Below, piece by piece: positions 1-19,468 of a stretch of DNA of 64,000 nucleotides. Source of the DNA: Betaproteobacteria bacterium (GTDB lineage: Bacteria; Pseudomonadota; Gammaproteobacteria; Burkholderiales; Rhodocyclaceae); the NCBI GenBank assembly GCA_009782565.1, contig WRIU01000006.1:1-64000 (forward strand). The letters run 5' to 3'. The stretch's first letter is position 1, and the number at the start of each line of letters is the position of its first letter. The notes below the pieces were generated by a model. That model had not been told where the DNA came from, searched no databases, and was given only the letters and a program-made list of their open reading frames with translations. A program made the position numbers and the translations under genes.

Positions 1-61
1 CAAAAAACATCATTCGTGTTTCCAGTGTCGGATGCTGTGATGGGTAGAGAGGGAACGGGCG

Positions 62-871
62 TCAGTCGTCGTCTTCATCGTTATATTTATTACCCAAGCT
101 GGCAATTTCTCCGTTCTTTGACAACATAAGATCGCCGCAATTTGAGATCATGCGAATGTGTATAGTTTTGTGATAGGGGTTGTCGTCTGTCACTGCTCTT
201 AATGAGCGGGCATAGGCTTCTTCTTTTCTCTGTAAATAATCTTTGTCATCTGAGTTTCTATTATCGCAGCACTCACGCTCAATCTCATAAATAGAACCAA
301 AATCAAAATAATGGTTCGCGTACCCAAGAAGTTTGTTGTACCAAGTCATTTTTTCCTTTGAGGCATCTTTCAGTTCTGGCGTCAAATCCGAAAACGCTAT
401 TTTTTTAAGATTGCTGGAGATAAAAATAGCAGCATCACCGCTTCTTCTTGGTTCAAAATATATCGCAAGAAAAGGTTCGCGTAACTGGCCGGGACTCAAG
501 GTATCGTATTTCTTTTTCGCCCGCCCATTCAGTAGGATTTTGTTAAGGCTGAAATTTTCTTCAAAAGATTTGCTGTTGTTATAGGAAACCTCAATCAGTT
601 TTTGGATGTTTGTTTCTTGGGTGGGGCTATTGATGCCTACCATAGAGTCTTCCTCAAGCTTATAATTATAGTAAACTGTTCGTTTGATTCTGTGGTTGAC
701 AAAATTTGCCAGAACCGTTTTTCGTAACTCATCTTCACTTAACACCCGCCCGGCTTTCAGGCATACCCCCTGCGTTTGCGCGTAATACGCCGATGAGAGG
801 AGCGTCGGGACAAAAACGCACAGGGCGATGGCTATTTTGCCCCATGTTTTTATTTGCATTTTCATTTTCAA
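62..871 (-). CDS. Hypothetical membrane-anchored/secreted protein, tandem paralog 1
   Basis: 269-aa ORF; N-terminal hydrophobic segment (IAIALCVFVPTLLSSAYYA); strongly similar over its full length to the ORFs at 938-1753 and 1821-2636; acidic C-terminus. Confidence 0.85.
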   Translation of the reverse strand: MKMKMQIKTWGKIAIALCVFVPTLLSSAYYAQTQGVCLKAGRVLSEDELRKTVLANFVNHRIKRTVYYNYKLEEDSMVGINSPTQETNIQKLIEVSYNNSKSFEENFSLNKILLNGRAKKKYDTLSPGQLREPFLAIYFEPRRSGDAAIFISSNLKKIAFSDLTPELKDASKEKMTWYNKLLGYANHYFDFGSIYEIERECCDNRNSDDKDYLQRKEEAYARSLRAVTDDNPYHKTIHIRMISNCGDLMLSKNGEIASLGNKYNDEDDD

Positions 872-937
872 TGCCGGTTATTCCGCATCGCGCGGGGCAA
901 AGAAAGAGATAGGCAAAGAGAGCCTATGGAACAGAGA

Positions 938-1753
938 TCAGTCTTCATTGCCTCCATCGTCATATTTACTGCCCAAGATGGCAAGTCCTCCGTGCTTTGA
1001 CCGCAAAAGTTCGCCGCAATTTGAAACTGCGCGAATATCTGTAATTTTGTGTTGGAATACGTTGTCTGACACATTTCTTAATGAGCTGTAATAGGCTTCT
1101 TCCTTTCTGTGCAAATAATCCTCGTCATCTGAATTTCTATTATCGCAGCATTCACGCCCAATAATATAAAATGAAGAACTAAAATCAAAATAATGATTCC
1201 CGTATCCAAGAAGTTTGTTGTACCAAGTCATCTTTTCCTTTGCCGCTCCTTTCAGTTCTGGCGTCAAATCCGAAAACGCTATCTTTTTAATGTTGTTGGA
1301 AATAAAAACATTTGCATTAAGATTTTTTCTTGGTTCAAAAACTATCGCAAGAAAAGGTTCGTGTAACTGGCTAGGTTTCAAGGTTTCGTATTCCTTTTGT
1401 ACTCGCCCATTCAGCAGGATTTTATTAAGGCCAAAGTTTTCTTCAAAAGATTTACCATTGTTATAGGAAGCCTCGATCAGTTTTTGGAGGTTTGTTTCTT
1501 GAGCGGAACTATTGATGCCCACCACAGAGTCATACTTCCACTCATGATTAGATTGGAATGCTTCTTTAATTCTCTGGTTGACAAAATTCGCCTGCACTGC
1601 TTTTCGCAGTTCATCTTCACTTAACACCCGTCCAGCTTTCAGGCATACCCCCTGCGTTTGCGCGTAATACGCCGATGAGAGGAGCGCCGGGACAAAAACG
1701 CACAGGGCGATGGCTATTTTGCCCCATGTTGTTAGATGCGCTTTCATCTTCAA
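938..1753 (-). CDS. Hypothetical membrane-anchored/secreted protein, tandem paralog 2
   Basis: 271-aa ORF; shares KEKMTWYNKLLGYxNHYFDF and RECCDNRxSDxxDYLxRKEEAY with the neighbouring paralogs. Confidence 0.85.
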   Translation of the reverse strand: MKMKAHLTTWGKIAIALCVFVPALLSSAYYAQTQGVCLKAGRVLSEDELRKAVQANFVNQRIKEAFQSNHEWKYDSVVGINSSAQETNLQKLIEASYNNGKSFEENFGLNKILLNGRVQKEYETLKPSQLHEPFLAIVFEPRKNLNANVFISNNIKKIAFSDLTPELKGAAKEKMTWYNKLLGYGNHYFDFSSSFYIIGRECCDNRNSDDEDYLHRKEEAYYSSLRNVSDNVFQHKITDIRAVSNCGELLRSKHGGLAILGSKYDDGGNED

Positions 1754-1820
1754 TGCCCCTTATTCCTCATCGCGCGGGACAAAGAAAGAGATAGGCAAAG
1801 ATGAGCCTACAGAACAGGAG

Positions 1821-2636
1821 TCAATCGTCGTCTTCATCGTTATATTTATTGCCCAAGATGGCAATTTCCCCGTTCTTTGACAGCAAAAGGTCGCCGCAAT
1901 TTGTGACAACGCCTATATTTGTATCAATGTGTTTAGTTTTGTCAACTGTCACTGCTTTTAATGAGAGGGTATAGGCTTCTTCCTTTCTCTGCAAATAATC
2001 TTTGTCATTTGAATCTCTATTATCGCAGCATTCGCGCATAATAGAATAAAAAAAAGGAAACCCAAAATCAAAATAATGATTCCCGTATCCAAGAAGTTTG
2101 TTATACCAAGTCATCTTTTCCTTTGCCGCTTCTTTCAGTTCTGGCTCCATATCCGAAAAAGCTATCTTTTTAAGATTACTTGAGATAAAAATAGTTGCAT
2201 CACCATTTCTTCTTGATTCAAAATCTATTGCAAGAAAAGGTTCGCTTAATTGGCCGGGACTCAAGGCATCGTATTTTTTTTGTTTCCGCCCATTCAGCAG
2301 GATTTTATTAAGGCCAAAGTTTTCTTCAAAAGATTTGTTGTTGTTATAGGAATCTTCAATTAGTTTTTGGAGGTTTGTTTCTTGAGTGGGGCTATTGATG
2401 CCTAGCACAGCATCTTGCTCAAACTCGTGATTATATCGAAATGTCTGTTTGATTCTGTGGTTGACTATATTTGCCAGGACTGCCTTTCGCAGTTCCTCTT
2501 CACCTAACGCCCGACCGGTCTTCAGGCATACCCCCTGCGTTTGCGCGTAATACGCTGATGAGAGGAGTGTCGGGACAAAAACGCACAGGGCGATGGCTAT
2601 TTTACCCCATGTTTTAATTTGCATTTTCATTTTCAA
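1821..2636 (-). CDS. Hypothetical membrane-anchored/secreted protein, tandem paralog 3
   Basis: 271-aa ORF; same N-terminus (MKMKMQIKTWGKIAIALCVFVPTLLSSAYYAQTQGVC) and conserved blocks as paralogs 1 and 2. Confidence 0.85.
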   Translation of the reverse strand: MKMKMQIKTWGKIAIALCVFVPTLLSSAYYAQTQGVCLKTGRALGEEELRKAVLANIVNHRIKQTFRYNHEFEQDAVLGINSPTQETNLQKLIEDSYNNNKSFEENFGLNKILLNGRKQKKYDALSPGQLSEPFLAIDFESRRNGDATIFISSNLKKIAFSDMEPELKEAAKEKMTWYNKLLGYGNHYFDFGFPFFYSIMRECCDNRDSNDKDYLQRKEEAYTLSLKAVTVDKTKHIDTNIGVVTNCGDLLLSKNGEIAILGNKYNDEDDD

Positions 2637-2642
2637 TGCCCG

Positions 2643-3719
2643 TCATTCCGTATCGCGCGGGACAAAACCATCGATAACAGGAACAGGTACAAGGAAAGGG
2701 GTAGATACGATTTTCGTCTTTATATTTGGTTTTGCATAGAGAATGCCATGGGCGTACAAGTCTTCCATTTTTTTAGCAAACCGGGAGGGGAAGCCCATCC
2801 CCTTGTCAAATATGCTGGCTTTTTGCGAATCAAGAAGCCTGTTGGTTCTTTCCAGTTCGGGTAGGTCTGCTTTGGTATAGTCCTTCCGGAAAGGATAGTT
2901 TCCGACAAATTTGATTGCAATCTTACGACCCATTTTCAACGGGTCAATCACGGGCCTCACTATCGCGTTGCTAATTTTGGCTTCCCAACTGTCGCTGTCG
3001 TAGTCATAGTTATCCTCAACCGGCTCCACCCAAATGTTCCGGACTTCGCGTCGCCCCATTTCGGAACCCTCCTGATATGGGTCGACGACAAACTGCGAAA
3101 ACCTGTTGATCTCGAAAGCGCTGGAACCGAAGACCTCGCAGCGGTCAACAAAATCCGGGTCATTCAAACCAAAATCGTACTGTTTCAGTGCGAACCGTCG
3201 TTTGATCTGATCGAAAACACCAAACTTTTGAAAAACCGCCTCTGGCCCGTATGACCCAGGCCAAAAATTCCCTTCTCCGGCCAGGAACCTCCTCACGACG
3301 CGGAACAGCGCGACGCTCATGAACCGCCCGCCGCCGTGCATCATGAACCACTTTTTATCAATCTCCACGTCCTGCCGCGTTGGCTTGGCCAGCTTCTTGA
3401 CATCGTCCCAGGTCTTGAGCGTGCCCTTTGCAGGGGGCTTGGTATCATCGTACAAGTAGATGCAGATGATTTCCTCCATCGTGGGAGCGCGGTCAACAAA
3501 CGGAAATGCCATGACGAATTCCTGTAGCGTAAGATTTACGCATACTATCTTGTTTCGCATAGGCTGCACAATGTGCAAATAATCCGCATAGCAAGGGCGG
3601 ATAAGGCCGCAGATCGCCATCCGCCGATCAACGGTTCCAATGCGAAGCAGTGCAAATTGATAGTCAGCGCCGCTTCGCGCCAAAATGAGAACGGCGGATG
3701 GTCTCGTTTCGTGGCTCAT
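2643..3719 (-). CDS. Hypothetical protein directly upstream of the tandem paralogs
   Basis: Long ORF on the same strand, about 6 bp from paralog 3; the true start may be internal (e.g. MRNKIVCVN... or MAFPFVDRAP...). No family recognised. Confidence 0.65.
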   Translation of the reverse strand: MSHETRPSAVLILARSGADYQFALLRIGTVDRRMAICGLIRPCYADYLHIVQPMRNKIVCVNLTLQEFVMAFPFVDRAPTMEEIICIYLYDDTKPPAKGTLKTWDDVKKLAKPTRQDVEIDKKWFMMHGGGRFMSVALFRVVRRFLAGEGNFWPGSYGPEAVFQKFGVFDQIKRRFALKQYDFGLNDPDFVDRCEVFGSSAFEINRFSQFVVDPYQEGSEMGRREVRNIWVEPVEDNYDYDSDSWEAKISNAIVRPVIDPLKMGRKIAIKFVGNYPFRKDYTKADLPELERTNRLLDSQKASIFDKGMGFPSRFAKKMEDLYAHGILYAKPNIKTKIVSTPFLVPVPVIDGFVPRDTE

Positions 3720-5582: not shown

Positions 5583-5734
5583 ATCAAAAAGGGTTGTGCA
5601 GAGCTTCCTTGGGTTGCGCGGCTTAATTTCTGACCTTCGGAGGATAGAATTAGCGGGAATGGAGGGCGAGGTGTTTGTTGAGCAAGAGCCTGTCCTCAAA
5701 AGCAATACATCTTGTTTGCATAGAGACGGAGATT

Positions 5735-7300
5735 ATGTCTGACAACAAAAAGGAACAGGAACGTGCGGAACTGCACCGCACCATCTGGAATATCGCCAAC
5801 GACCTGCGTGGAAGCGTGGACGGGTGGGACTTCAAGCAATACGTGCTCGGCATCCTTTTCTACCGCTACATTTCCGAAAACATCGCCACCTACATCAACG
5901 CCGGGGAACGTGAGGCGGGCGATGAGTCCTTCGATTACGCCAAGCTGCCAGACAGCAAGGCCGAGCTTACCCGCGTGGAACTGGTCGACACAAAGGGCTT
6001 CTTTATCCTGCCAAGCGAACTGTTCGAGAATGTCCGTAGCCGCGCCGCGTCGGACGAGAACCTGAACGAGACGCTGGAAAGGATTTTCAGGCATATCGAA
6101 TCCTCCGCCCAGGGTACAGACAGCGAGGACGACATCAAAGGGCTGTTTGACGACATCGACGTCAACAGCAACAAGCTGGGCGCCTCGGTCGCCAAGCGCA
6201 ATGAGCGCCTAGTCAAGCTGCTCAACGGCGTGGGCGAGATGCAGCTTGGCGATTACAAGGACAACACCATCGACGCCTTTGGCGACGCCTATGAATTCCT
6301 CATGGGCATGTACGCCGGTAACGCGGGCAAAAGCGGCGGCGAGTATTACACCCCGCAGGAGGTTTCCGAACTTCTCGCCCACCTGACGCTCGTTGGCAAA
6401 ACCAAAGTCAACAAGGTCTATGACCCGGCCTGCGGCTCCGGTTCGCTGCTGTTGAAGTTCGCCAAGATTCTTGGGAAAGAGAACATCCGGCAGGGCTTTT
6501 TCGGGCAGGAGATCAACATCACCACCTACAACCTCTGCCGCATCAACATGTTCCTGCACGACATCGACTACGACAAGTTTGACATCGGCCACGGGGACAC
6601 ACTCACCGAGCCGCTGCATTGGGACGATGAACCGTTCGAGGCGATTGTTTCCAATCCGCCGTATTCGATCAAATGGGCGGGCGACGAAAATCCCCTGCTG
6701 ATTAACGATCCGCGTTTTTCTCCGGCGGGCGTGCTTGCGCCGAAGAGCAAGGCTGACCTCGCCTTCATCATGCACAGCCTGTCCTGGCTGGCCACCAGCG
6801 GCACGGCGGCCATTGTCTGCTTCCCCGGCATTCTCTATCGCGGCGGGGCGGAGCAGAAAATCCGCAAATATCTCATCGACAACAATTATGTTGATTGCGT
6901 AATACAGTTGCCGGGCAACCTTTTTTACGGCACGAGCATCGCTACCTGCATCATGGTGCTGAAAAAGTCCAAGAGCGAGAACAGCACCCTGTTCATTGAC
7001 GCAAGCCGCGAATGCGTCAAGGTCACGAACAACAACAAACTCACGCAGGCGAACATTGACGCCATCCTTGCCGCGTACATGGCGCGGAAAGACGCGCCGC
7101 ATTTTGCCGCGCTTGTGCCCAACGGGGACATTGCCGCGCAGGACTACAATCTTTCTGTCAGTTCCTACGTTGAGCAGGAGGACAAGCGCGAGAAGGTGGA
7201 CATCGCCGTACTGAATGCCGAAATTGAGCGCATCGTTGCCCGTAGCGATGTTCTGCGTCGGGAGATCGCCGCCATCATCGAGGAAATAGAGGGGGCGTAA
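5735..7300 (+). CDS. hsdM: Type I restriction-modification system methyltransferase subunit HsdM
   Basis: RAELHRTIWNIANDLRGSVDGWDFKQYVLGILFYRYISENI; GGEYYTPQEVSELLAHL; DPACGSGSLLL; NPPYS. Confidence 0.95.
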   Translation: MSDNKKEQERAELHRTIWNIANDLRGSVDGWDFKQYVLGILFYRYISENIATYINAGEREAGDESFDYAKLPDSKAELTRVELVDTKGFFILPSELFENVRSRAASDENLNETLERIFRHIESSAQGTDSEDDIKGLFDDIDVNSNKLGASVAKRNERLVKLLNGVGEMQLGDYKDNTIDAFGDAYEFLMGMYAGNAGKSGGEYYTPQEVSELLAHLTLVGKTKVNKVYDPACGSGSLLLKFAKILGKENIRQGFFGQEINITTYNLCRINMFLHDIDYDKFDIGHGDTLTEPLHWDDEPFEAIVSNPPYSIKWAGDENPLLINDPRFSPAGVLAPKSKADLAFIMHSLSWLATSGTAAIVCFPGILYRGGAEQKIRKYLIDNNYVDCVIQLPGNLFYGTSIATCIMVLKKSKSENSTLFIDASRECVKVTNNNKLTQANIDAILAAYMARKDAPHFAALVPNGDIAAQDYNLSVSSYVEQEDKREKVDIAVLNAEIERIVARSDVLRREIAAIIEEIEGA

Positions 7301-7303
7301 TCA

Positions 7304-8308
7304 ATGAGGAAAGCGGGCAATCAAATCATTATCTTCAAGACGGAAGATGAAAAAATATCTGTTGATGTGCGCTTTGGCGAGGAAAGCGCCTGGTTGACGC
7401 TTGACCAGATGGCTATGCTGTTTGAGCGTGATAAATCAACGATTTCACGCCATATTAAAAATGTTTTTGAAGAAGGTGAGTTGGTGAGAAATTCAGTTGT
7501 TGCAAATTTTGCAACAACTGCCGCCGATGGCAAAACGTATCAAGTTGATTATCACAACCTCGATGTGATTATTTCCGTCGGGTATCGCGTCAAATCCCTG
7601 CGTGGTACGCAATTTCGCCAATGGGCGACGAAGCGGCTGAATGAATATATCCGTAAGGGCTTCACGCTTGACGATGAGCGGCTGAAAAATGGCGGCGGGC
7701 GATATTTTCGGGAACTGTTGCAACGCATCCGCGACATTCGCAGCAGCGAGCGCAACCTGTATCAGCAAGTGACAGATATTTATACAACAGCGATTGATTA
7801 CAACCCCAAAACAGATATTGCGCGGGAGTTTTTTGCAACGGTGCAGAACAAAATGCACTATGCCGCGCATAAACACACGGCGGCGGAAGTGATTTACGAA
7901 CGCGCGGACAGCCGCAAACCTCTGGTCGGCATGACGAATTTCAAGGGTAACTATATTACGAAAGAGGATGTCCGCATTGCCAAAAATTTTTTGAGCGAAA
8001 GAGAGTTGCAGATATTGAATCTGCTTGTATCGCAGTTTTTGGATTATGCCGAGCTGCAAGCGCTGGAAGAACACGCTATGACTATGGCGGACTGGGTTGC
8101 CGAACTCGACCGTCAATTACTGGGCAACCGGCGCGAACTGCTCATAGGCAAGGGAAGCGTCTCGCATAAGCGGGCGATTGAAAAAGCTGAAAAAGAATTT
8201 GAGATATACCGCACGCGGGAGATGAAACAATTGGAGAGTGATTTTGACCGGGCAGTGAAGCAACTGGCAAAAAACCATGCGGGAGACGAGAGCGATGAGC
8301 AAGCTTGA
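7304..8308 (+). CDS. Virulence RhuM-family protein
   Basis: SAWLTLDQMAMLFERDKSTISRHIKNVFEEGEL ... AADGKTYQVDYHNLDVIISVGYRVKS ... FRQWATKRLNEYIRKGF is typical of RhuM-family proteins. Confidence 0.9.
   Translation: MRKAGNQIIIFKTEDEKISVDVRFGEESAWLTLDQMAMLFERDKSTISRHIKNVFEEGELVRNSVVANFATTAADGKTYQVDYHNLDVIISVGYRVKSLRGTQFRQWATKRLNEYIRKGFTLDDERLKNGGGRYFRELLQRIRDIRSSERNLYQQVTDIYTTAIDYNPKTDIAREFFATVQNKMHYAAHKHTAAEVIYERADSRKPLVGMTNFKGNYITKEDVRIAKNFLSERELQILNLLVSQFLDYAELQALEEHAMTMADWVAELDRQLLGNRRELLIGKGSVSHKRAIEKAEKEFEIYRTREMKQLESDFDRAVKQLAKNHAGDESDEQA
7495..7519. repeat. 25-bp intragenic palindrome, 12-1-12 (agttgttgcaaa t tttgcaacaact)
   Basis: Perfect 12-bp inverted repeat with a 1-nt centre inside the rhuM-like CDS. 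Confidence 0.95.
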
Positions 8309-9494
8309 CCGGCTGATCGCCGAGCTTTGCCCGGATGGGGTGGAATGCGCTCCGTTGGGAGAGATTTGTGACATCACTCGCGGGCGGGTCATGTCAAAGG
8401 ATTATCTACGAGACAATGTGGGCGATTATCCTGTTTATTCTTCACAGACAGCAAATAACGGCATATTCGGTTATATAAACACGTATGACTACGACTGCGA
8501 ATCTATAACATGGACAACTGACGGTGCAAACGCTGGTTCTGTATTTTATCATGTTGGAGAAAAATTCAGTATAACAAATGTATGCGGTTTATTAAAAGTA
8601 AAAGACATAGACAAAATCAGTGCAAAATTCATATATTATATTTTGCAAATTTCTGCGAAGGATTACGTTAATGATGGTATGGGCAACCCCAAGCTAATGA
8701 GTAATGTTATGGCGAAGGTCATCATTCCCCTCCCACCCCTCTCCATCCAACAAGAAATCGTCCGCATTTTGGACAAATTCACGGAGCTTACAGCGGAGCT
8801 TACAGCGGAGCTTGCAGCGAGGAAAAAGCAATATCAATATTATCGGAACGAATTGCTGACTTTTGGCGATGATGTGCCAGTGGTGTTGTTGGGAGAAGTG
8901 TGTTTACATACGAGTAATATCCGTTGGAAAGAATCAGATGATGAATATTATTATATTGATCTAACATCTGTGGATCGAGAAACTAATAAAATTCAGCCTG
9001 AGCAGGTAATAAATTCAGCAAATGCTCCAAGTAGGGCACAGCAGATTATTAAAAATAATGATGTACTGTTCGCTACAACACGTCCTACATTACAACGATA
9101 TTGTTTTATACCATCAAAATTTGATGGGCAGATATGTAGTACTGGATATTGCATTTTGCGAGCTAATACACAAAGGATATTGCCAAAATTTCTTTATTTC
9201 ACAATAACAACCGGAAATTTCAACTTGTACGTTGAGAATAACCAAGAAGGCACAAGTTATCCGGCTATATCCGATGCCAAGGTAAAAAGATATAAATTCT
9301 CTCTCCCCTCGCTCGAAGAACAAGCCCGCATCGTTTCTATCCTCGACCGTTTCGACACCCTGACCACCGACATCACCAGCGGCCTGCCCGCCGAGATCGA
9401 AGCCCGCCGCAAGCAATACGAGTACTACCGCGACAAGCTGCTAACCTTCCCACTCCGTCATTGCGAGGAGCGAAGCGACGAAGCAATCCAGTAA
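8295..9494 (+). CDS. hsdS: Type I restriction-modification specificity subunit HsdS
   Basis: Two target-recognition halves, each ending in a conserved region (AARKKQYQYYRNELLTF; EARRKQYEYYRDKLLTF); overlaps the rhuM 3' end in an operon with hsdM. Confidence 0.93.
   Translation: MSKLDRLIAELCPDGVECAPLGEICDITRGRVMSKDYLRDNVGDYPVYSSQTANNGIFGYINTYDYDCESITWTTDGANAGSVFYHVGEKFSITNVCGLLKVKDIDKISAKFIYYILQISAKDYVNDGMGNPKLMSNVMAKVIIPLPPLSIQQEIVRILDKFTELTAELTAELAARKKQYQYYRNELLTFGDDVPVVLLGEVCLHTSNIRWKESDDEYYYIDLTSVDRETNKIQPEQVINSANAPSRAQQIIKNNDVLFATTRPTLQRYCFIPSKFDGQICSTGYCILRANTQRILPKFLYFTITTGNFNLYVENNQEGTSYPAISDAKVKRYKFSLPSLEEQARIVSILDRFDTLTTDITSGLPAEIEARRKQYEYYRDKLLTFPLRHCEERSDEAIQ
8790..8813 (+). repeat. 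Two exact tandem copies of 12-bp acagcggagctt in the hsdS central spacer (TAEL repeat)
   Basis: Encodes ...TELTAELTAELAARKK... Confidence 0.9.
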
Positions 9495-9537
9495 AAACGG
9501 TGAAATAATGCAGATGGATTGCTGCGCCCGCAATGAC
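9457..9537. repeat. Dispersed palindromic repeat element (RHCEERSDEAIQ-encoding type) at the hsdS/hsdR junction
   Basis: gtcattgcgaggagcgaagcgacgaagcaatcca (9457-9490) is followed by an internally deleted inverted arm, tggattgctgcgcccgcaatgac (9515-9537). Confidence 0.8.
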
Positions 9538-9558
9538 AAAGACAAGGAAGTTACGTAC

Positions 9559-12500
9559 ATGAGCCAATACCGCATCATCGCCGCCGACAACGAATCGACA
9601 GTCGTCGCCGAATATAAGCCTGCCCTGTGTGTGCGGGAGGATTCTTATCAATCCGAAGCGGAGCTTGAGCGGGACTTCATCAAACGCCTGCAAGGGCAAG
9701 GCTATGAACGCATCCACGTTACTGACGAAGCGGGTTTGATTGCCAACCTGCGCCGTCAGTTGGAGGCTTTGAACGACACGGCCTTTACCGACTCAGAATG
9801 GAAGCTGTTTTTCCGCGAGTGCATTTCCGGCGCGAACGACGGCATCGTGGAAAAAACCCGTCGGATACAGGACGACTATGTGCAAATCCTCAAGCGTGAG
9901 GACGGCAGCACGAAGAACATTTATCTGATCGACAAAAAGAACATCCATAACAACCGCCTCCAAGTCCTGAACCAATACGAGGAAGCGCGCGGCGCGCGTG
10001 AAAACCGCTACGACGTGACGATTCTGGTCAACGGCCTGCCGCTGATCCACGTCGAACTGAAGCGCCGGGGCGTGGCCATCCGCGAGGCGTTCAACCAGAT
10101 CAAACGCTATCAGCGGGACAGCTTTTGGGCAGCTTCCGGGCTGTATGAATATGTTCAGATTTTCGTCATCAGCAACGGCACCTACACCAAGTATTACAGC
10201 AACACCACCCGCGACCAGCACATCAGGGGGATGGGGGGCGATGAGCGCAAGAGCCGCAAAAAAACCAGCAACAGCTTTGAGTTCACAAGCTACTGGGCGG
10301 ACGCCACGAACAAGGTCATCGCCGACCTCACAGACTTTACCGCGACGTTCTTCGCCAAGCACACGATCCTGAACATCCTCACCCGCTACTGTGTGTTCAC
10401 TTCGGAAGAATTGCTGCTCGTCATGCGCCCATACCAGATCGCGGCGACCGAGCGAATCCTCTCGCGCATCGAAATTGCGGCCAACTATAAAAAAGCCGGC
10501 ACGGTCGAAGGCGGCGGATACATCTGGCACACCACCGGCAGCGGCAAGACGCTGACCAGCTTCAAGACGGCACAGCTTGCCAAGAACCTGCCCAGCATCG
10601 ACAAGGTGCTGTTCGTCGTTGACCGCAAAGACCTCGATTACCAGACCATGAAGGAGTACGACCGCTTCGAGAAAGGCGCGGCCAACTCCAACACCTCCAC
10701 GAGAGTGCTGAAACGGCAACTGGAAGACCCAAACGCCCGGATCATCATCACCACCATCCAGAAGCTCGGTATCTTTGTCGGCAAGAACAAGAATCACCCC
10801 GTATTCTGCAAGCACGTCGCGCTGATATTCGACGAATGCCACCGCTCCCAATTCGGGGAATTGCACCAGGCGATTACCAAGGCATTCAAGCGTTACCACA
10901 TCTTCGGCTTTACCGGCACGCCGATTTTCTCCAAAAACGCCGGACATGGCGGCAATCCGTTCCTGCGGACGACGGAACAGGCGTTTGGGGACAGGCTGCA
11001 TACCTACACCATCGTGGACGCCATCAACGATGGCAATGTGCTGCCGTTTCGCATCGACTACGTGAACACGGTGAAGATGTCGCCGGACGTGCAGGACGCG
11101 AAAGTCCGGGCTATCGACGTGGAAAAGGCCATGTCCGCCCCGGAGCGCGTGCGGGAGATCGTAAAGTACACGCTCGAACACTTCGACCAAAAGACCTACA
11201 GGAATAAAAACCGCGCCTTCTTCCAGCACCGGGTTATCGTGAATGTCGAAGAAGTCGCGGCCAGCAAACACGGCAAGGTAGAAGAGGAAAAAGCAAGCAG
11301 AAGGGTTGAGGGGTTCAATTCCATCTTTGCCGTGGCCTCGATTCCAATGGCGATGAAGTTCTACGAAGAATTCAAGCGCCAGAATGCGGAAAGCAGCCGC
11401 AAACTGCGTATCGCCACCATCTTCAGCTTCTGTGCCAACGAGGACGACCCGGAGGACACGCTTACCGATGAGGGGTTCGAGAACGACAAACTCGACAAGG
11501 CCTCCCGCGACTTTCTGGAAAGTGCCATTGCTGACTACAACGCCATGTTTGGAGCCAGCTACGATACTTCGGCGGACAAATTCCAGAATTTCTACAAAGA
11601 CCTGTCCTTACGTGTCAAAAACCGCGAGATTGACCTGCTGATCGTGGTCAACATGTTCCTGACGGGGTTTGACGCGACCACACTCAACACGCTCTGGGTG
11701 GACAAAAACCTGAAACAGCACGGGCTGATCCAGGCTTTTTCCCGCACCAACCGCATCCTCAATTCTGTTAAAACTTTTGGAAACATCATCTGTTTTCGTG
11801 ACCTGAAGCAAGCCACGGATGAGGCCATTGGCCTCTTTGGCGACCGGGAAGCGGGCGGTATCGTCCTGCTGAAAACCTATGACGAGTATTACAACGGGTA
11901 CGAAGAAAAAGGAAAGCACAAGCCAGGATACAAAGAACTCATTGGGCGGCTCGTCACGACCTACCCCTTGGGCGTCGACATCGTTGGCGAGATGGCAAAG
12001 AAGGGCTTTATCAACCTTTTTGGCGCAATCCTGCGCGTGAAAAACATTCTGACTTCTTTTGATGAGTTCGCGGGCAACGAAATTTTGTCCGAACGGGAAT
12101 TTCAGGATTATCAGAGCAGATACATCGATCTGTATCAGGAGTTTTCCAGGGACAAAAGCGCTGATAAAGAAAATATCAATGACGATGTGATTTTCGAGAT
12201 CGAGCTGATCAAGCAGATCGAGGTCAACATTGATTACATCCTCATGCTGGTGGCCAGATACCACGAAACGAACTGCACGGACTTGAGCATCCTTCAGGCG
12301 ATTGAAAAGGCTGTGAGTTCCAGTATCGAGCTTCGGAGCAAGAAAGAACTTATCGAAGGCTTTATTGCGCGGGTCAATACTGCAACCCAAGTGGACGACG
12401 ACTGGCAAAAGTACGTCCAGGAACAGAAGGAAAACGATTTGTCTGCCCTGATTGCTGCCGAGAAGCTGAAGCCGGAGGAAACACGGCGCTTTGTTGAAAA

Positions 12501-12660
12501 TTCCTTCCGTGATGGCGCGATCAGAACCACCGGCACGGATATTGATAGAATTTTGCCGCCCATGTCGCGATTTAGCGGCGGGGGGGAACGGACAACCAAA
12601 AAGCAGAACGTTATTGAAAAGCTGCTCAGGTTTTTTGAGAAGTATTTTGGGTTGTCATAA
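9559..12660 (+). CDS. hsdR: Type I restriction endonuclease subunit HsdR
   Basis: MRPYQIAATERIL, WHTTGSGKTLTSFKTA, FVVDRKDLDYQT, IFDECHRSQFGE, FGFTGTPIF helicase motifs; N-terminal nuclease region with LVNGLPLIHVELKRRG. Confidence 0.95.
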   Translation: MSQYRIIAADNESTVVAEYKPALCVREDSYQSEAELERDFIKRLQGQGYERIHVTDEAGLIANLRRQLEALNDTAFTDSEWKLFFRECISGANDGIVEKTRRIQDDYVQILKREDGSTKNIYLIDKKNIHNNRLQVLNQYEEARGARENRYDVTILVNGLPLIHVELKRRGVAIREAFNQIKRYQRDSFWAASGLYEYVQIFVISNGTYTKYYSNTTRDQHIRGMGGDERKSRKKTSNSFEFTSYWADATNKVIADLTDFTATFFAKHTILNILTRYCVFTSEELLLVMRPYQIAATERILSRIEIAANYKKAGTVEGGGYIWHTTGSGKTLTSFKTAQLAKNLPSIDKVLFVVDRKDLDYQTMKEYDRFEKGAANSNTSTRVLKRQLEDPNARIIITTIQKLGIFVGKNKNHPVFCKHVALIFDECHRSQFGELHQAITKAFKRYHIFGFTGTPIFSKNAGHGGNPFLRTTEQAFGDRLHTYTIVDAINDGNVLPFRIDYVNTVKMSPDVQDAKVRAIDVEKAMSAPERVREIVKYTLEHFDQKTYRNKNRAFFQHRVIVNVEEVAASKHGKVEEEKASRRVEGFNSIFAVASIPMAMKFYEEFKRQNAESSRKLRIATIFSFCANEDDPEDTLTDEGFENDKLDKASRDFLESAIADYNAMFGASYDTSADKFQNFYKDLSLRVKNREIDLLIVVNMFLTGFDATTLNTLWVDKNLKQHGLIQAFSRTNRILNSVKTFGNIICFRDLKQATDEAIGLFGDREAGGIVLLKTYDEYYNGYEEKGKHKPGYKELIGRLVTTYPLGVDIVGEMAKKGFINLFGAILRVKNILTSFDEFAGNEILSEREFQDYQSRYIDLYQEFSRDKSADKENINDDVIFEIELIKQIEVNIDYILMLVARYHETNCTDLSILQAIEKAVSSSIELRSKKELIEGFIARVNTATQVDDDWQKYVQEQKENDLSALIAAEKLKPEETRRFVENSFRDGAIRTTGTDIDRILPPMSRFSGGGERTTKKQNVIEKLLRFFEKYFGLS

Positions 12661-16100: not shown

Positions 16101-17499
16101 CGAACGACTGTTGCCAACCCGTGACCGGAACCCGGCTTGAGACATCCGCCTCCAGACGCACACCCGCGTTGAGCGTGACATTCATCTGATGCCATTCCAC
16201 GCCGGTCAACGTCTCGTCCGCGCCGACTGTCACCAGCAGCGCCGCCGACAAATCATCGGGGGCTTCTCTTCGTGCCATAAGGCTATCGGCGCGTTCCAGC
16301 CTGTAAGGCTTCGCCACATCGAACCGCCAGCCCTGGCGCATGCTTCCCTCGATGCGATCCCGCGCGAAAAATCCCTTTCCGGAAAAATCCAGCCACATAT
16401 CGCGTTTCAGCACTAACCGCTGGCCTTCGCGTTCGTTCTGCCCACGGGAACGTTCCTCGATCTGGAAACGCGCCTTGGGATTGACCACGAAAGCGGGCAA
16501 CGACAACCACCCTGCTGGCACACCCGCCTGACGGGGGTCGACATTGAGCATGCTCTCGTTGGGAGAAACCGCCGTGACGCGCAAGACAGGAGTAGCTTCG
16601 TAGCTCCAAACTTCCTGCTGGCGTTCCGGAGAGAATATGGGTTCGACATCTTCCAGCGGCTTATTGAGGCGGGCTTCGACCTCGACCACTGCCTGTCCGG
16701 GCATCACCTGCACTTGCAAGCGCCCATCCGTATCCAAGCGCGCCGCCCAGGGCGAAGAAATGCTTATCGGTACGAAGTGCGCGGGTAAAACATTCGATAC
16801 GCTCCATTCGCGCGCCTTGCCTGAAACCTTGAGTAAAAACCGTGTCGTGAGGCGTGCCGGAATCCCGTCGGAGAGCTTGCGAAACACCTGAATATCGAGA
16901 CTGTCCTCCGCCCGCGTTACCGCGTCTTCCTGCGCGCCCAACATAAGCGCCTTGCCGTGACGCGCCAGCGGCAATACGGGTTTGCCGTCGATCACGAGCG
17001 AGACCAGCGCCACGTTCTCTGGAATATCCATCGCCTGTGGGCGTTCCTGCCACGAAATCCAGCCGCTTACCGCATGCCGGCCCTTCGTCAGCCACACGAC
17101 CGGAGTATCGCCTCTCAGCAGTACCGGATGCGCCCGGCCATCGACCGCGACCTGTTGCGGCCAGTATTTACGGTTACCCGGCAAGGGCACGGCGCTTTCA
17201 TACTGCAATTCCCAATTCTGGAGAAACTTCATACCGTCGCCCTGCCGCGCGGCTTCCAGCTTCAATTCCCCCGGCCAGGCGCAGAAAGAGCGATCATGCT
17301 GACCCGAAACGGATGGGCAAAGCCAAGCTTCCTGTCCGTGCAGCGCCCAGCCTTTCCACGGTTTCAGGGATTCCGGAATAGTGCTGTCACCACTGCCTGC
17401 TGCCGCCAGCACGGCTCCGCTCCACAAAACCGGCACAAGCACCATCACCCCAAACAAAAACGCCCTAAACCCCATTTTCTGCCCAAGATGGTTTTTCAT
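13123..17499 (-). CDS. Very large predicted membrane/periplasmic protein of unknown function
   Basis: 1458-aa ORF; signal-like N-terminus; hydrophobic clusters mid-protein and near the C-terminus (e.g. ILDVFLAAFFALLAWRMFGTVGGVISIAYLTLG; LYWGELLAALLLAFLLA). Confidence 0.85.
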   Translation of the reverse strand: MKNHLGQKMGFRAFLFGVMVLVPVLWSGAVLAAAGSGDSTIPESLKPWKGWALHGQEAWLCPSVSGQHDRSFCAWPGELKLEAARQGDGMKFLQNWELQYESAVPLPGNRKYWPQQVAVDGRAHPVLLRGDTPVVWLTKGRHAVSGWISWQERPQAMDIPENVALVSLVIDGKPVLPLARHGKALMLGAQEDAVTRAEDSLDIQVFRKLSDGIPARLTTRFLLKVSGKAREWSVSNVLPAHFVPISISSPWAARLDTDGRLQVQVMPGQAVVEVEARLNKPLEDVEPIFSPERQQEVWSYEATPVLRVTAVSPNESMLNVDPRQAGVPAGWLSLPAFVVNPKARFQIEERSRGQNEREGQRLVLKRDMWLDFSGKGFFARDRIEGSMRQGWRFDVAKPYRLERADSLMARREAPDDLSAALLVTVGADETLTGVEWHQMNVTLNAGVRLEADVSSRVPVTGWQQSFDSVETTLRMPYGYRLIAAPGVDRASGNVWVERWTILDVFLAAFFALLAWRMFGTVGGVISIAYLTLGMHESAPVQPFAAVIILALLCRALPEGRLRKVLRAGERIALLCFVGAAVLFIPTQIRTALYPQLEGGGMVEAVLVDMPADMPDEQDSAVDRMERIAELGAVSPASPPPPESLSIKSSQEAVMRSQGAVVMSKEAEKPATLRRGMSAYAPEQRQRYAQSTVTQTGGGEPAWTLGHSYRLHWSGPVTEAQSVRLLLSPPWLTRLLRLLIVALLGWLVWRSVRMVFPGAGAPSSWGKPGAAKASTPSATAALFILCLAGFVAVGLGFSTPTAAAPPESSAFPPDDLLEELRTRLLKAPACSPSCVDIAKVRIDADASQFKVMLVAHVEAVTSLPLPVPDEQMTLRGARVNGEAQPVLRVGEQNYIALPRGVHHVQLEYALDDDSASLGFPIRPAQIEFGSAYWQADGIDEGRLLGETLNFSRVAAATAAPSTDRKGGGDAAMALSSSAQQFPPFVHVQRDLIFDLDWSVRTQVRRIAPEDGGFTFPVPLLPGEHITTPELKVQDGRALAVFASKTNTANWTARLDKVKNVIELRAPLLTEHAETWRVTVNPSWHLEWEGVPVTLKSSGEDVMFVFHPLPGEKLVLTLTQPVKTEGGIRAIDSVRLENHVGQHASDVTLEFNLRASQGGEHLITLPSELEVLEVRRGGVPLNLQARENRLSLPVSPGSQTYTLRLRHQGEVGFFMSSPGIALGLPAANINLRVVLGKQRWILATSGPVVGPAVLYWGELLAALLLAFLLAKSGISSLKRWQWFLLVLGFSTFSWMTLFVITLWLLVIDWRVRRESCSDWPARRFNAMQVGIVILTAMMLYKLINTVPEGLLGVPDMGIRGYGSGNNNLAWFADQSDSLLPVATVFSLPIWLYRALMLAWTLWLANILIRWLSRGFSAWLKNGYWKKTGRMWKKKTVPQPIASETATGDEKCDQNGEEGGK

Positions 17500-17584
17500 T
17501 ATTCGTCCCCGCCCGGTTTACATTTAGATATTGTAAATATAAAACAGAAAACCCAACCTTCCCTTCCTGTCGCTTTTGCCCGCC

Positions 17585-19468
17585 ATGCCGATCCAGCCCG
17601 CCACGCTCCTGTTCGCCCCCGACGGTACGCCTCGTTCGGACATGTTCGATGATGTTTATCACTCTGCCGATGGCGGACTGGGGCAAGCACGGCATGTTTT
17701 TCTGGGCGGAAACGGCCTGCCGGAACGCTGGCGTGGTCGAGACCGCTTTGTCATCGTGGAAACGGGGTTCGGGCTTGGGTTGAATTTCCTGGCCACCTGG
17801 GCGGCCTGGCGGGAAGACGCTGCCCGTGCGCGCGTACTGCATTTCATTTCCTGCGAACTGCACCCGTTCCGGGTCGATGACCTGGCGCGGCTCCATGCCA
17901 ACTGGCCGGAGCTTGCGCCGCTCGCCGCCCAGTTGCGCGCCCAATGGCCCGTGCTCGCGGGAGGGATGCACCGCCTGCATCTGGATGGGGGGAGGGTGTG
18001 CCTGACACTGTATTTCGGCGATGTCCGTGAGGGATTGGCGCAGATCGACGCATGTGCCGACGCTTTTTTTCTGGATGGCTTTTCTCCCGCCAAAAACCCG
18101 GTCATGTGGTCGGCGCGGGTCTTTCATCTGCTCTCGCGTCTGGCTGCTCCGGGGGCAAGCCTGTCGACGTGGTCGGTTGCGGGGGAAGTGCGCGAGGGTT
18201 TGCGCCGCGCGCGGTTCCTCGTGGAGAAAGCGCCGGGTTTCGGCGGCAAGCGGGAAATGCTGCGCGGCGCGCTTCATCCAGAGGCGCGCGCGCGCCAGCC
18301 TTCTTTGCCTCCAGCCTTGCGTCAGGCGGTCATCATCGGTGCGGGCGCGGCGGGGACGGCGGTTTGTGAACGTTTGTGTGCGCGCGGCTGGGAGATCGAC
18401 ATCATCGACTCCGCCGATGGGCCGGGCCGGGGGGCTTCCGGCAATCACGCCGGAGTATTGCGCCCACAGCCCAGTTTCGACGACAACCGCATGAGCCGCA
18501 TCACGCGCGCCGGGGCGCTGTACGGCTGGCGGCGCATCGGGGAAATCCTTGCCTCGGGCATGAAGCTCCGCGCGGCGGCTTGCGGGGTTTTCCATCTCGC
18601 GCGCGACACGGAACAGGAAATGAAGATGCGGGCCGTGGTCGAACGCCTCGCCCTGCCCGAAGAACTGCTTCGTCAGGCCGATGCCATTGAAGCGAGCGAG
18701 AGTATTGGCTGGCGCGTCCCGCGCGGCGGCTGGCATTTTCCGGGCTGCGGATGGGTGCAGCCTCCGAGTTTGTGCGCGACCAATCTCGCCACCTTCCAGG
18801 AGCGCGTCCGCGCGCACTGGTCTTGCCCTGTCGCGGCCATCGAGCGCCGTGGAGAATGCTGGCATGCGCTCGCTGCCGATGGCTGCACCATCGCCCGCGC
18901 GCCGGTCATGATTCTCGCTGCCGGAGTCGGAGTGAACCGCTTTTCGCAGGCCGAAAATGTGCCGGTGTTCAGCGCGCGCGGGCAGGTTAGCGTATTGCCC
19001 GCCGCAACAGGCAACGCCCCGCGCGTCGTGGTCTGCCAGGGGGGTTACGTGACGCCCGAAGTCGACGGCTTGCGTTGCGCGGGAGCCAGTTTCGACGTTG
19101 GCGACCCCGACCCCGCCGCGCGCCTGATCGACCAGCGGGCCAACCTCGCCAAGCTGGAGAGCATCCTGCCTGGTTACACAGAAGGGTTGAATGCCGACAT
19201 GCTCGGCGCGCGTGTCGGTTTCCGTCCGGTTTCACCCGACCGCCTGCCATTGGTTGGAGCCATGCCCATCGACAGCCAATCCAGTCATCCGGGGCTGTAC
19301 ATCCTCTCCGGTTTCGGCGCGCGCGGGCTGGCCTGGGCAACGCTTACAGGCGAGATACTGGCATCACGGATAGAAGACGAGCCGCTGCCGCTGGAGCGTG
19401 AATTGGTCGATGCCATGAGCCCTGGGCGCTTTTTTCGTACATTGAAACCGGAAATGAATCACGGATAG
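17585..19468 (+). CDS. mnmC: Bifunctional tRNA (mnm5s2U34) methyltransferase/FAD-dependent cmnm5U oxidoreductase
   Basis: FVIVETGFGLGLNFLATW SAM domain plus AVIIGAGAAGTAVCERL FAD domain and HPGLYILSGFGARGLAWA; the ATG at 17585 or the upstream TTG may be the start. Confidence 0.93.
   Translation: MPIQPATLLFAPDGTPRSDMFDDVYHSADGGLGQARHVFLGGNGLPERWRGRDRFVIVETGFGLGLNFLATWAAWREDAARARVLHFISCELHPFRVDDLARLHANWPELAPLAAQLRAQWPVLAGGMHRLHLDGGRVCLTLYFGDVREGLAQIDACADAFFLDGFSPAKNPVMWSARVFHLLSRLAAPGASLSTWSVAGEVREGLRRARFLVEKAPGFGGKREMLRGALHPEARARQPSLPPALRQAVIIGAGAAGTAVCERLCARGWEIDIIDSADGPGRGASGNHAGVLRPQPSFDDNRMSRITRAGALYGWRRIGEILASGMKLRAAACGVFHLARDTEQEMKMRAVVERLALPEELLRQADAIEASESIGWRVPRGGWHFPGCGWVQPPSLCATNLATFQERVRAHWSCPVAAIERRGECWHALAADGCTIARAPVMILAAGVGVNRFSQAENVPVFSARGQVSVLPAATGNAPRVVVCQGGYVTPEVDGLRCAGASFDVGDPDPAARLIDQRANLAKLESILPGYTEGLNADMLGARVGFRPVSPDRLPLVGAMPIDSQSSHPGLYILSGFGARGLAWATLTGEILASRIEDEPLPLERELVDAMSPGRFFRTLKPEMNHG

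What the first reader, a model, noticed from the sequence alone, without database searches (positions are those of the whole stretch)
62..3719. Triplicated anchored/secreted protein array behind an orphan 358-aa gene: possible effector with multiple immunity paralogs
Three roughly 270-aa paralogs repeat with a period of about 876-883 bp, and the intergenic spacers are also duplicated (cgcgcgggacaaagaaagagataggcaaag). Conserved cores alternate with short divergent patches (e.g. IKRTVYYNYKLEE / IKEAFQSNHEWKY / IKQTFRYNHEFEQ), and the N-termini suggest periplasmic location. In polymorphic toxin and T6SS effector loci, one effector followed by duplicated periplasmic immunity genes is an established layout. 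Here that role is inference only.
Basis: partly seen in the sequence, partly recalled or inferred. Interest (0 to 1): 0.6.

Follow-up and report, generated by a model that had tools for sequence, protein, structure and literature searches.

The report
T6SS toxin with triplicated immunity genes
A betaproteobacterium carries an undescribed antibacterial toxin gene followed by three diverged copies of what is almost certainly its antidote gene, wired to the type VI secretion 'harpoon'; the same toxin-antidote pair occurs elsewhere inside giant secreted RTX proteins, so one weapon domain appears to have been used by two delivery machines.

Summary
The array is real: three intact paralogs (70-79% identical, dN/dS below 1) follow the orphan gene in one apparent operon. 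The orphan is probably 289 aa, not 358, because the extra 5' stretch is a dispersed repeat. A second, diverged copy (orphan plus two paralogs) lies on another contig of the same genome. In related MAGs the orphan and one to three paralogs travel together, followed by an hcp gene at all five intact loci. Contig ends imply the same here. Each spacer keeps an in-frame relic of the orphan's 3' end, so 'orphan tip plus paralog' was the duplicated unit. The orphan domain also forms the N-terminus of RTX proteins (P. aeruginosa plasmid Rms149, Rhizobium, Sphingobium, Nostoc), usually with a membrane-anchored, cysteine-bearing partner directly upstream. No Pfam, NCBIfam or PDB family matches either protein. 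The predicted fold weakly but selectively hits colicin M-family toxins, and the conserved D-x-[YF]-D-[FY] segment matches part of colicin M's active site, without its His-Arg. Best reading: a T6SS periplasmic toxin, perhaps a lipid II hydrolase, with a homogeneous polyimmunity locus. A new family of a known kind.

The parts
2643..3512 (-). orphan = candidate toxin, 289 aa (MAFPFVDRAPTMEE...), probable true CDS; motif D167-N-Y-D170-Y
   Evidence: C18 homolog (87% id) starts at the same residue; conserved in 17 sequences
3513..3719 (-). in-frame 5' extension, probably not part of the conserved protein; contains the dispersed repeat 3594-3699
   Evidence: not conserved in the C18 copy; 85% and 74% DNA matches on C5 and C15
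1821..2636 (-). candidate immunity gene 3 (271 aa from TTG; ATG at 2630 likelier): N-terminal membrane helix, ectodomain with four conserved Cys
938..1753 (-). candidate immunity gene 2 (most diverged copy)
62..871 (-). candidate immunity gene 1
1754..1820 (-). spacer between genes 3 and 2; keeps relic of the toxin gene's 3' end (F-V-P-R-D-E-E-stop, in frame)
872..937 (-). spacer between genes 2 and 1; same relic with small changes
1..123 (.). contig end shared base for base with the end of contig C18 (second array); implies both arrays run into the same collapsed repeat

Best explanation
This is a type VI secretion effector-immunity cassette in which the immunity gene has been tandemly triplicated. 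The 289-aa protein is a stand-alone (cargo) toxin. By analogy with its relatives' loci it would be loaded with the Hcp encoded just downstream and injected into the periplasm of neighbouring bacteria. The ~265-aa proteins sit in the inner membrane by one N-terminal helix, present a disulfide-bearing domain to the periplasm and neutralise the toxin there. Diverged copies, changing mainly in two short patches, extend protection to variant toxins made by kin or neighbours (a homogeneous polyimmunity locus). The toxin's most likely activity is colicin M-like attack on lipid II (a divalent-metal phosphoesterase using the D-x-[YF]-D cluster); that step is the least certain. Shown: the gene arrangement, conserved pairing, hcp linkage in relatives, a T6SS core gene in this genome, relic-marked duplication. 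Inferred: toxicity, immunity, T6SS export, topology, enzymatic target. The confidence given is for the T6SS effector-immunity reading; the lipid II step alone is about 0.4.
For: Pairing: orphan and paralog adjacent in this genome (two loci), in the 'Azoarcus sp.' MAGs Cc175, Iy174 (two loci), Gx481 (three) and Gsp477, in Zoogloeaceae Cd354, and on P. aeruginosa plasmid Rms149. hcp follows the cassette at all five intact loci outside this genome (Pfam 95). Own genome: contig ends pair both arrays (123-bp shared end) with two contigs that start inside hcp (123-bp shared end), one continuing into a PLD-family protein; TssC at C12:25275. Same genome, contig C11: hcp, then a Tlde1 effector, then four tandem two-helix paralogs, an independent case of the same layout. 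Copies are under purifying selection, and each spacer keeps the toxin gene's last codons and stop. Anchored topology and four conserved Cys. Colicin M: the top six PDB fold hits are all colicin M-family (best E 0.084, prob 0.57), against best prob 0.06 in the viral library. Motif D-x-[YF]-D-[FY] resembles DKYDFNASTHR, whose D226, Y228 and D229 are essential (PMC8469651). Precedent: DUF3289 T6SS effectors are colicin M-like with a membrane immunity partner (PMC11148199, PMC12135965).
Against: No experiment. The hcp linkage in this genome is inferred from contig ends, not read through. The fold hits are below significance (TM about 0.25) and come from one family, so they count as one hit. The His-Arg half of the colicin M motif is missing, and no sequence search reaches PF14859, DUF3289 or any PDB chain. 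The domain also heads RTX proteins, where it could serve another role. Binding of toxin and partner was not modelled.
Confidence: 0.78

Rival explanations
1. Same effector-immunity pair and T6SS delivery, but the toxin is not a colicin M-like lipid II hydrolase: it attacks another envelope target (membrane, phospholipid, peptidoglycan) by a different mechanism.
For: Fold similarity to colicin M is sub-significant; His-Arg of DxYDx5HR absent; no sequence-level link. A membrane-anchored immunity protein fits any periplasmic target.
Against: The only coherent group of fold hits is colicin M, and the best-conserved acidic segment matches half of its active-site motif.
Confidence: 0.5
2. The conserved domain is not a toxin but a structural or export domain of RTX-type surface proteins, and the anchored partner is its dedicated chaperone or anchor; the short T6SS-linked form is a derivative.
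For: In P. aeruginosa Rms149, Rhizobium, Sphingobium, Nostoc, Gloeothece and several MAGs the domain is at the N-terminus of RTX proteins, twice with type I secretion genes beside it.
Against: The stand-alone form is a well-supported clade (99/100), sits with hcp, and its two copies here are under purifying selection; only the partner gene is multiplied; a broken toxin copy keeps an intact partner (G019 C24), as expected of immunity genes.
Confidence: 0.1
3. The three copies serve gene dosage (more of one antidote) rather than protection against variant toxins.
For: All copies are intact and share most of the ectodomain; they are adjacent in one apparent operon.
Against: Copies differ by 21-30% in aa with substitutions clustered in two patches; dosage alone does not need divergence.
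Confidence: 0.25

Closest known systems
T6SS Hcp-linked cargo effector-immunity modules
   Same: Small toxin gene, adjacent immunity gene, hcp next door, T6SS in the genome
   Different: Toxin and immunity families match no Pfam or NCBIfam model; export not shown
DUF3289 (PF11692) T6SS effectors with DUF943 or short membrane immunity proteins (PMC11148199, PMC12135965)
   Same: Colicin M-like fold prediction; membrane-linked immunity partner; T6SS context
   Different: No profile match to DUF3289; the 269-271-aa partner is longer than the 95-aa Aeromonas immunity protein and matches no Pfam family
Colicin M / PF14859 bacteriocins and Cmi-type immunity (PMC5821083, PMC8469651)
   Same: Weak fold match; D-x-[YF]-D-[FY] segment; Cmi is also inner membrane-anchored, periplasmic and disulfide-stabilised
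   Different: No His-Arg after the motif, no sequence match; the partner shows no match to the YebF/Cmi family in Pfam
Homogeneous polyimmunity loci (PMC3482391)
   Same: Tandem, same-strand, closely spaced diverged paralogs of one immunity family
   Different: Here the array directly follows its toxin, and each spacer carries a relic of the toxin gene's end
RTX giants exported by type I secretion (Rms149, Rhizobium, Sphingobium)
   Same: Share the N-terminal domain and, in most, an upstream anchored partner
   Different: The window protein has no RTX repeats and no T1SS genes beside it

Membership tests
T6SS effector-immunity module | Candidate toxin next to a T6SS secreted component gene (hcp/vgrG/PAAR) | tested here: met
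   hcp directly downstream in G015, G005 (two), G019 (two); in this genome inferred from contig ends
T6SS effector-immunity module | Genome encodes the apparatus | tested here: met
   TssC/VipB at C12:25275 and four Hcp hits; other core genes not searched
T6SS effector-immunity module | Adjacent, co-inherited immunity gene located where the toxin acts | tested here: met
   adjacency and co-occurrence; N-terminal membrane helix and conserved Cys
T6SS effector-immunity module | T6SS-dependent secretion; toxicity neutralised by partner | not testable with these tools
   needs bench work
Colicin M family (PF14859) | Profile match to PF14859 | tested here: not met
   no such Pfam hit at E up to 10
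Colicin M family (PF14859) | DxYDx5HR catalytic motif | tested here: inconclusive
   D-x-[YF]-D-[FY] conserved (first residue Glu in the two cyanobacterial proteins), His-Arg absent; degenerate motifs are known in the family
Colicin M family (PF14859) | Colicin M catalytic fold | tested here: inconclusive
   top six Foldseek hits, E 0.084 at best, TM about 0.25
Colicin M family (PF14859) | Lipid II hydrolysis | not testable with these tools
   needs assay
DUF3289 T6SS effectors | Profile match to PF11692 | tested here: not met
   no hit in members nor in this genome
Homogeneous polyimmunity locus | Several tandem paralogs of one immunity family, same strand, short spacers, not interrupted by toxin genes | tested here: met
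   three here, two on C18, three in G019; spacers about 67 bp here
RTX / T1SS exoproteins | GGxGxDxLx repeats and T1SS genes | tested here: not met
   absent from the window protein; present in relatives

The most novel reading that the evidence does not exclude
A previously unnamed toxin-immunity module, spread over Pseudomonadota, Campylobacterota and Cyanobacteria, has switched delivery machine: in most lineages the toxin domain heads giant RTX proteins exported by type I secretion, and in one betaproteobacterial genus it was cut loose as a T6SS Hcp-linked cargo, after which its immunity gene was amplified. Its active site would be a His-Arg-less variant of the colicin M lipid II hydrolase.
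Probability: 0.3. Interest if true: 0.72.

Novelty: new member of a known kind. Interest (0 to 1): 0.52.

Why it matters
It gives a testable new antibacterial toxin-antidote family with no domain annotation, found from betaproteobacterial MAGs to a P. aeruginosa plasmid and cyanobacteria. If the same domain is delivered by T1SS and T6SS, it shows a toxin module crossing between secretion machines together with its immunity gene. If it cleaves lipid II, it adds a divergent enzyme to a short list of lipid II toxins. The relic-marked arrays (three, two and three copies) are a clean record of how polyimmunity loci grow.

Tried and rejected
Pfam, NCBIfam, PHROGs and PADLOC gave no family; PsbM, ACCA_BT, SOBP and MGT hits are weak or low-complexity and were rejected. 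PDB profile searches with orphan and paralog alignments found nothing. Fold search of the paralog model gave no meaningful match; the viral fold library served only as background. Viral contigs and phages hold no relative. PF14859 and PF11692 scans of 274-369 class-level genomes rang in none, so no natural sequence was at hand for a direct profile-profile test. A1/A4 profiles found almost nothing in evenly drawn class or phylum samples, so the family is patchy. G013 L031 (weak match inside a porin-like frame) was rejected as a relative. The C. coli and Nostoc partners resemble the paralogs (anchor, Cys, [RK]-x-L-x-x-[EN], C-terminal NCG), but profile comparison is not significant. Promoter scan no better than chance.

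Full report
OBSERVATION. The window is the first 64 kb of contig C6 of a 2.27-Mb, 19-contig genome. On the minus strand an ORF at 2643-3719 is followed by three open paralogs at 1821-2636, 938-1753 and 62-871. The repeats keep register at 882/883 bp with 72-87% DNA identity. The paralogs share 70-79% aa identity with dN/dS 0.26-0.53. Variable residues cluster in patches, chiefly aa 63-78 and 227-240. The orphan gene stops 6 bp before the first paralog and the other gaps are about 67 bp, consistent with one operon.

START OF THE ORPHAN. The 358-aa reading is probably too long. Nucleotides 3594-3699 are a dispersed repeat with relatives on C5 and C15, and a second copy of the gene on C18 (87% identical) begins at the residue corresponding to nt 3512. 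I take 289 aa, 2643-3512.

A SECOND ARRAY. C18 ends with a homologous gene (16923-17792) and two more paralogs. The end of C18 and the start of C6 share exactly 123 bases, and the starts of C2 and C7 (both beginning inside hcp) also share exactly 123 bases. Such equal overlaps are what an assembler leaves around a collapsed two-copy repeat. The simplest reading is that each array continues into an hcp gene; on C2 that hcp is followed by a PLD-family protein. This junction is inferred, not read.

RELICS. Each spacer between paralogs carries the last codons and stop of the toxin gene: FVPRDTE-stop in the gene, FVPRDEE-stop in the par3-par2 spacer, VVPRDAE-stop in the C18 spacer, and a close variant in the par2-par1 spacer. 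The duplicated unit was therefore the tip of the toxin gene plus the immunity gene.

CO-OCCURRENCE. Searching 150 related genomes, the orphan was found in ten (some weak, broken, or a rejected match) and full-length paralogs in five, all of which carry the orphan. By chance alone this overlap would be about 4e-7 (hypergeometric, my arithmetic, not corrected for kinship). Named records for the same contigs are 'Azoarcus sp.' MAGs Cc175_bin81, Iy174_bin16, Gx481_bin58, Gsp477_bin173 and TD116_bin18, with Zoogloeaceae Cd354_bin109 and Accumulibacter Pcl387_bin123. In Cc175, Iy174 (two loci) and Gx481 (two intact loci) the order is toxin, one to three paralogs, hcp (Hcp confirmed by Pfam in Cc175 and in one Gx481 locus, and by sequence in the others). 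A broken toxin copy in Gx481 C24 keeps an intact paralog and has no hcp. TD116 and G020 keep only remnants of the partner.

TWO ARCHITECTURES. In Gsp477, TD116, Cd354 and Accumulibacter the domain is the N-terminus of a protein with RTX-type repeats; in Gsp477 and Cd354 the partner gene lies upstream. On P. aeruginosa plasmid Rms149 the order is T1SS ABC transporter, HlyD, glycosyltransferase, partner, then an RTX protein of about 3,060 aa with the domain at its N-terminus. Further plasmid relatives are in Rhizobium, Nostoc, Gloeothece, Methylobacterium, Sphingobium and Campylobacter coli. In Rhizobium, Nostoc and Sphingobium the ORF directly upstream is a short membrane-anchored (or lipoprotein-like) protein with Cys...CC...Cys; Sphingobium has T1SS genes just before it. 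No such partner was seen in Gloeothece or Methylobacterium. Remote homology of these partners to the paralogs is suggestive only. The C. coli domain is a confident relative (hhalign E 1.8e-18). In a tree the stand-alone, hcp-linked form is one clade (99/100).

SAME LAYOUT ELSEWHERE IN THE GENOME. C11 carries hcp, a Tlde1-domain effector (PF10908, E 2.7e-27) and four tandem two-helix paralogs of about 100 aa, 47-83% identical. TssC is on C12. The genome thus has the apparatus and an independent effector with a multiplied partner gene.

MECHANISM. [quoted passage not shown] The toxin model (pLDDT 80, pTM 0.76) hits pectocin M2, pectocin M1, PaeM and syringacin M as its top six PDB matches, best E 0.084 and probability 0.57 but TM about 0.25. 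The viral library gave nothing above probability 0.06. The best-conserved acidic segment of the family is [DE]-x-[YFW]-D-[YFL]; colicin M's essential segment is DKYDFNASTHR. The His-Arg half is missing, as in some degenerate colicin M-type proteins. DUF3289 T6SS effectors are an established precedent for colicin M-like T6SS toxins with membrane-linked immunity. I give the lipid II step about 0.4 on its own.

WHAT IS KNOWN. The layout is a homogeneous polyimmunity locus (PMC3482391) attached to a T6SS cargo effector. Neither protein has a Pfam, NCBIfam or PADLOC family or a PDB relative. Filing: a new effector-immunity family; not a member of PF14859 or PF11692 by profile.

LIMITS. No toxicity, immunity, secretion or enzymology is shown. 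I believe the related MAGs come from termite guts, from their naming; this is recollection and was not checked.

Noticed in passing
G000:C11:17296-19675 (L056:12296-14675): hcp, Tlde1-domain effector and four tandem two-helix ~100-aa paralogs: a second effector with a multiplied candidate immunity gene in the same genome.
   Followed up: partly
window 3594-3699; G000:C5:74411-74539; G000:C15:9841-9933: Dispersed repeat of about 106 bp (74-85% identical) overlapping the 5' part of the 358-aa ORF; possibly a MITE-like element.
   Followed up: no
L054 (G000:C2:1-2558): hcp followed by a 662-aa PLD-family protein, a possible Tle5-type lipase effector.
   Followed up: partly
NC_007100.1 15746-30608 (L072): P. 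aeruginosa plasmid Rms149 carries T1SS genes, a glycosyltransferase, the anchored partner and an RTX protein of about 3,060 aa with the toxin domain at its N-terminus.
   Followed up: partly
L073:6732-9467 (C. coli plasmid CP059370.1): The annotated gene start (8016) is too late: the ORF runs from 7590 and holds the whole toxin domain; the 274-aa anchored ORF before it is a possible partner. A 132-aa ORF further upstream (2978-3376) looks like a VgrG tail by eye, without a Pfam hit.
   Followed up: partly
L070 (G289:C5): A 239-aa protein weakly related to the toxin domain (hhalign E 9e-7) overlapping an upstream lipoprotein-like gene; a possible more distant pair.
   Followed up: partly
window 5675-12660: Type I restriction-modification genes (hsdM, hsdS-like, hsdR) with a RhuM-like gene between hsdM and hsdS, named from the translations by eye only.
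   Followed up: no
G015:C19:16949-17686 (L087): Decayed paralog (stops in frame) with no toxin-gene match on its contig: an orphaned immunity relic.
   Followed up: no
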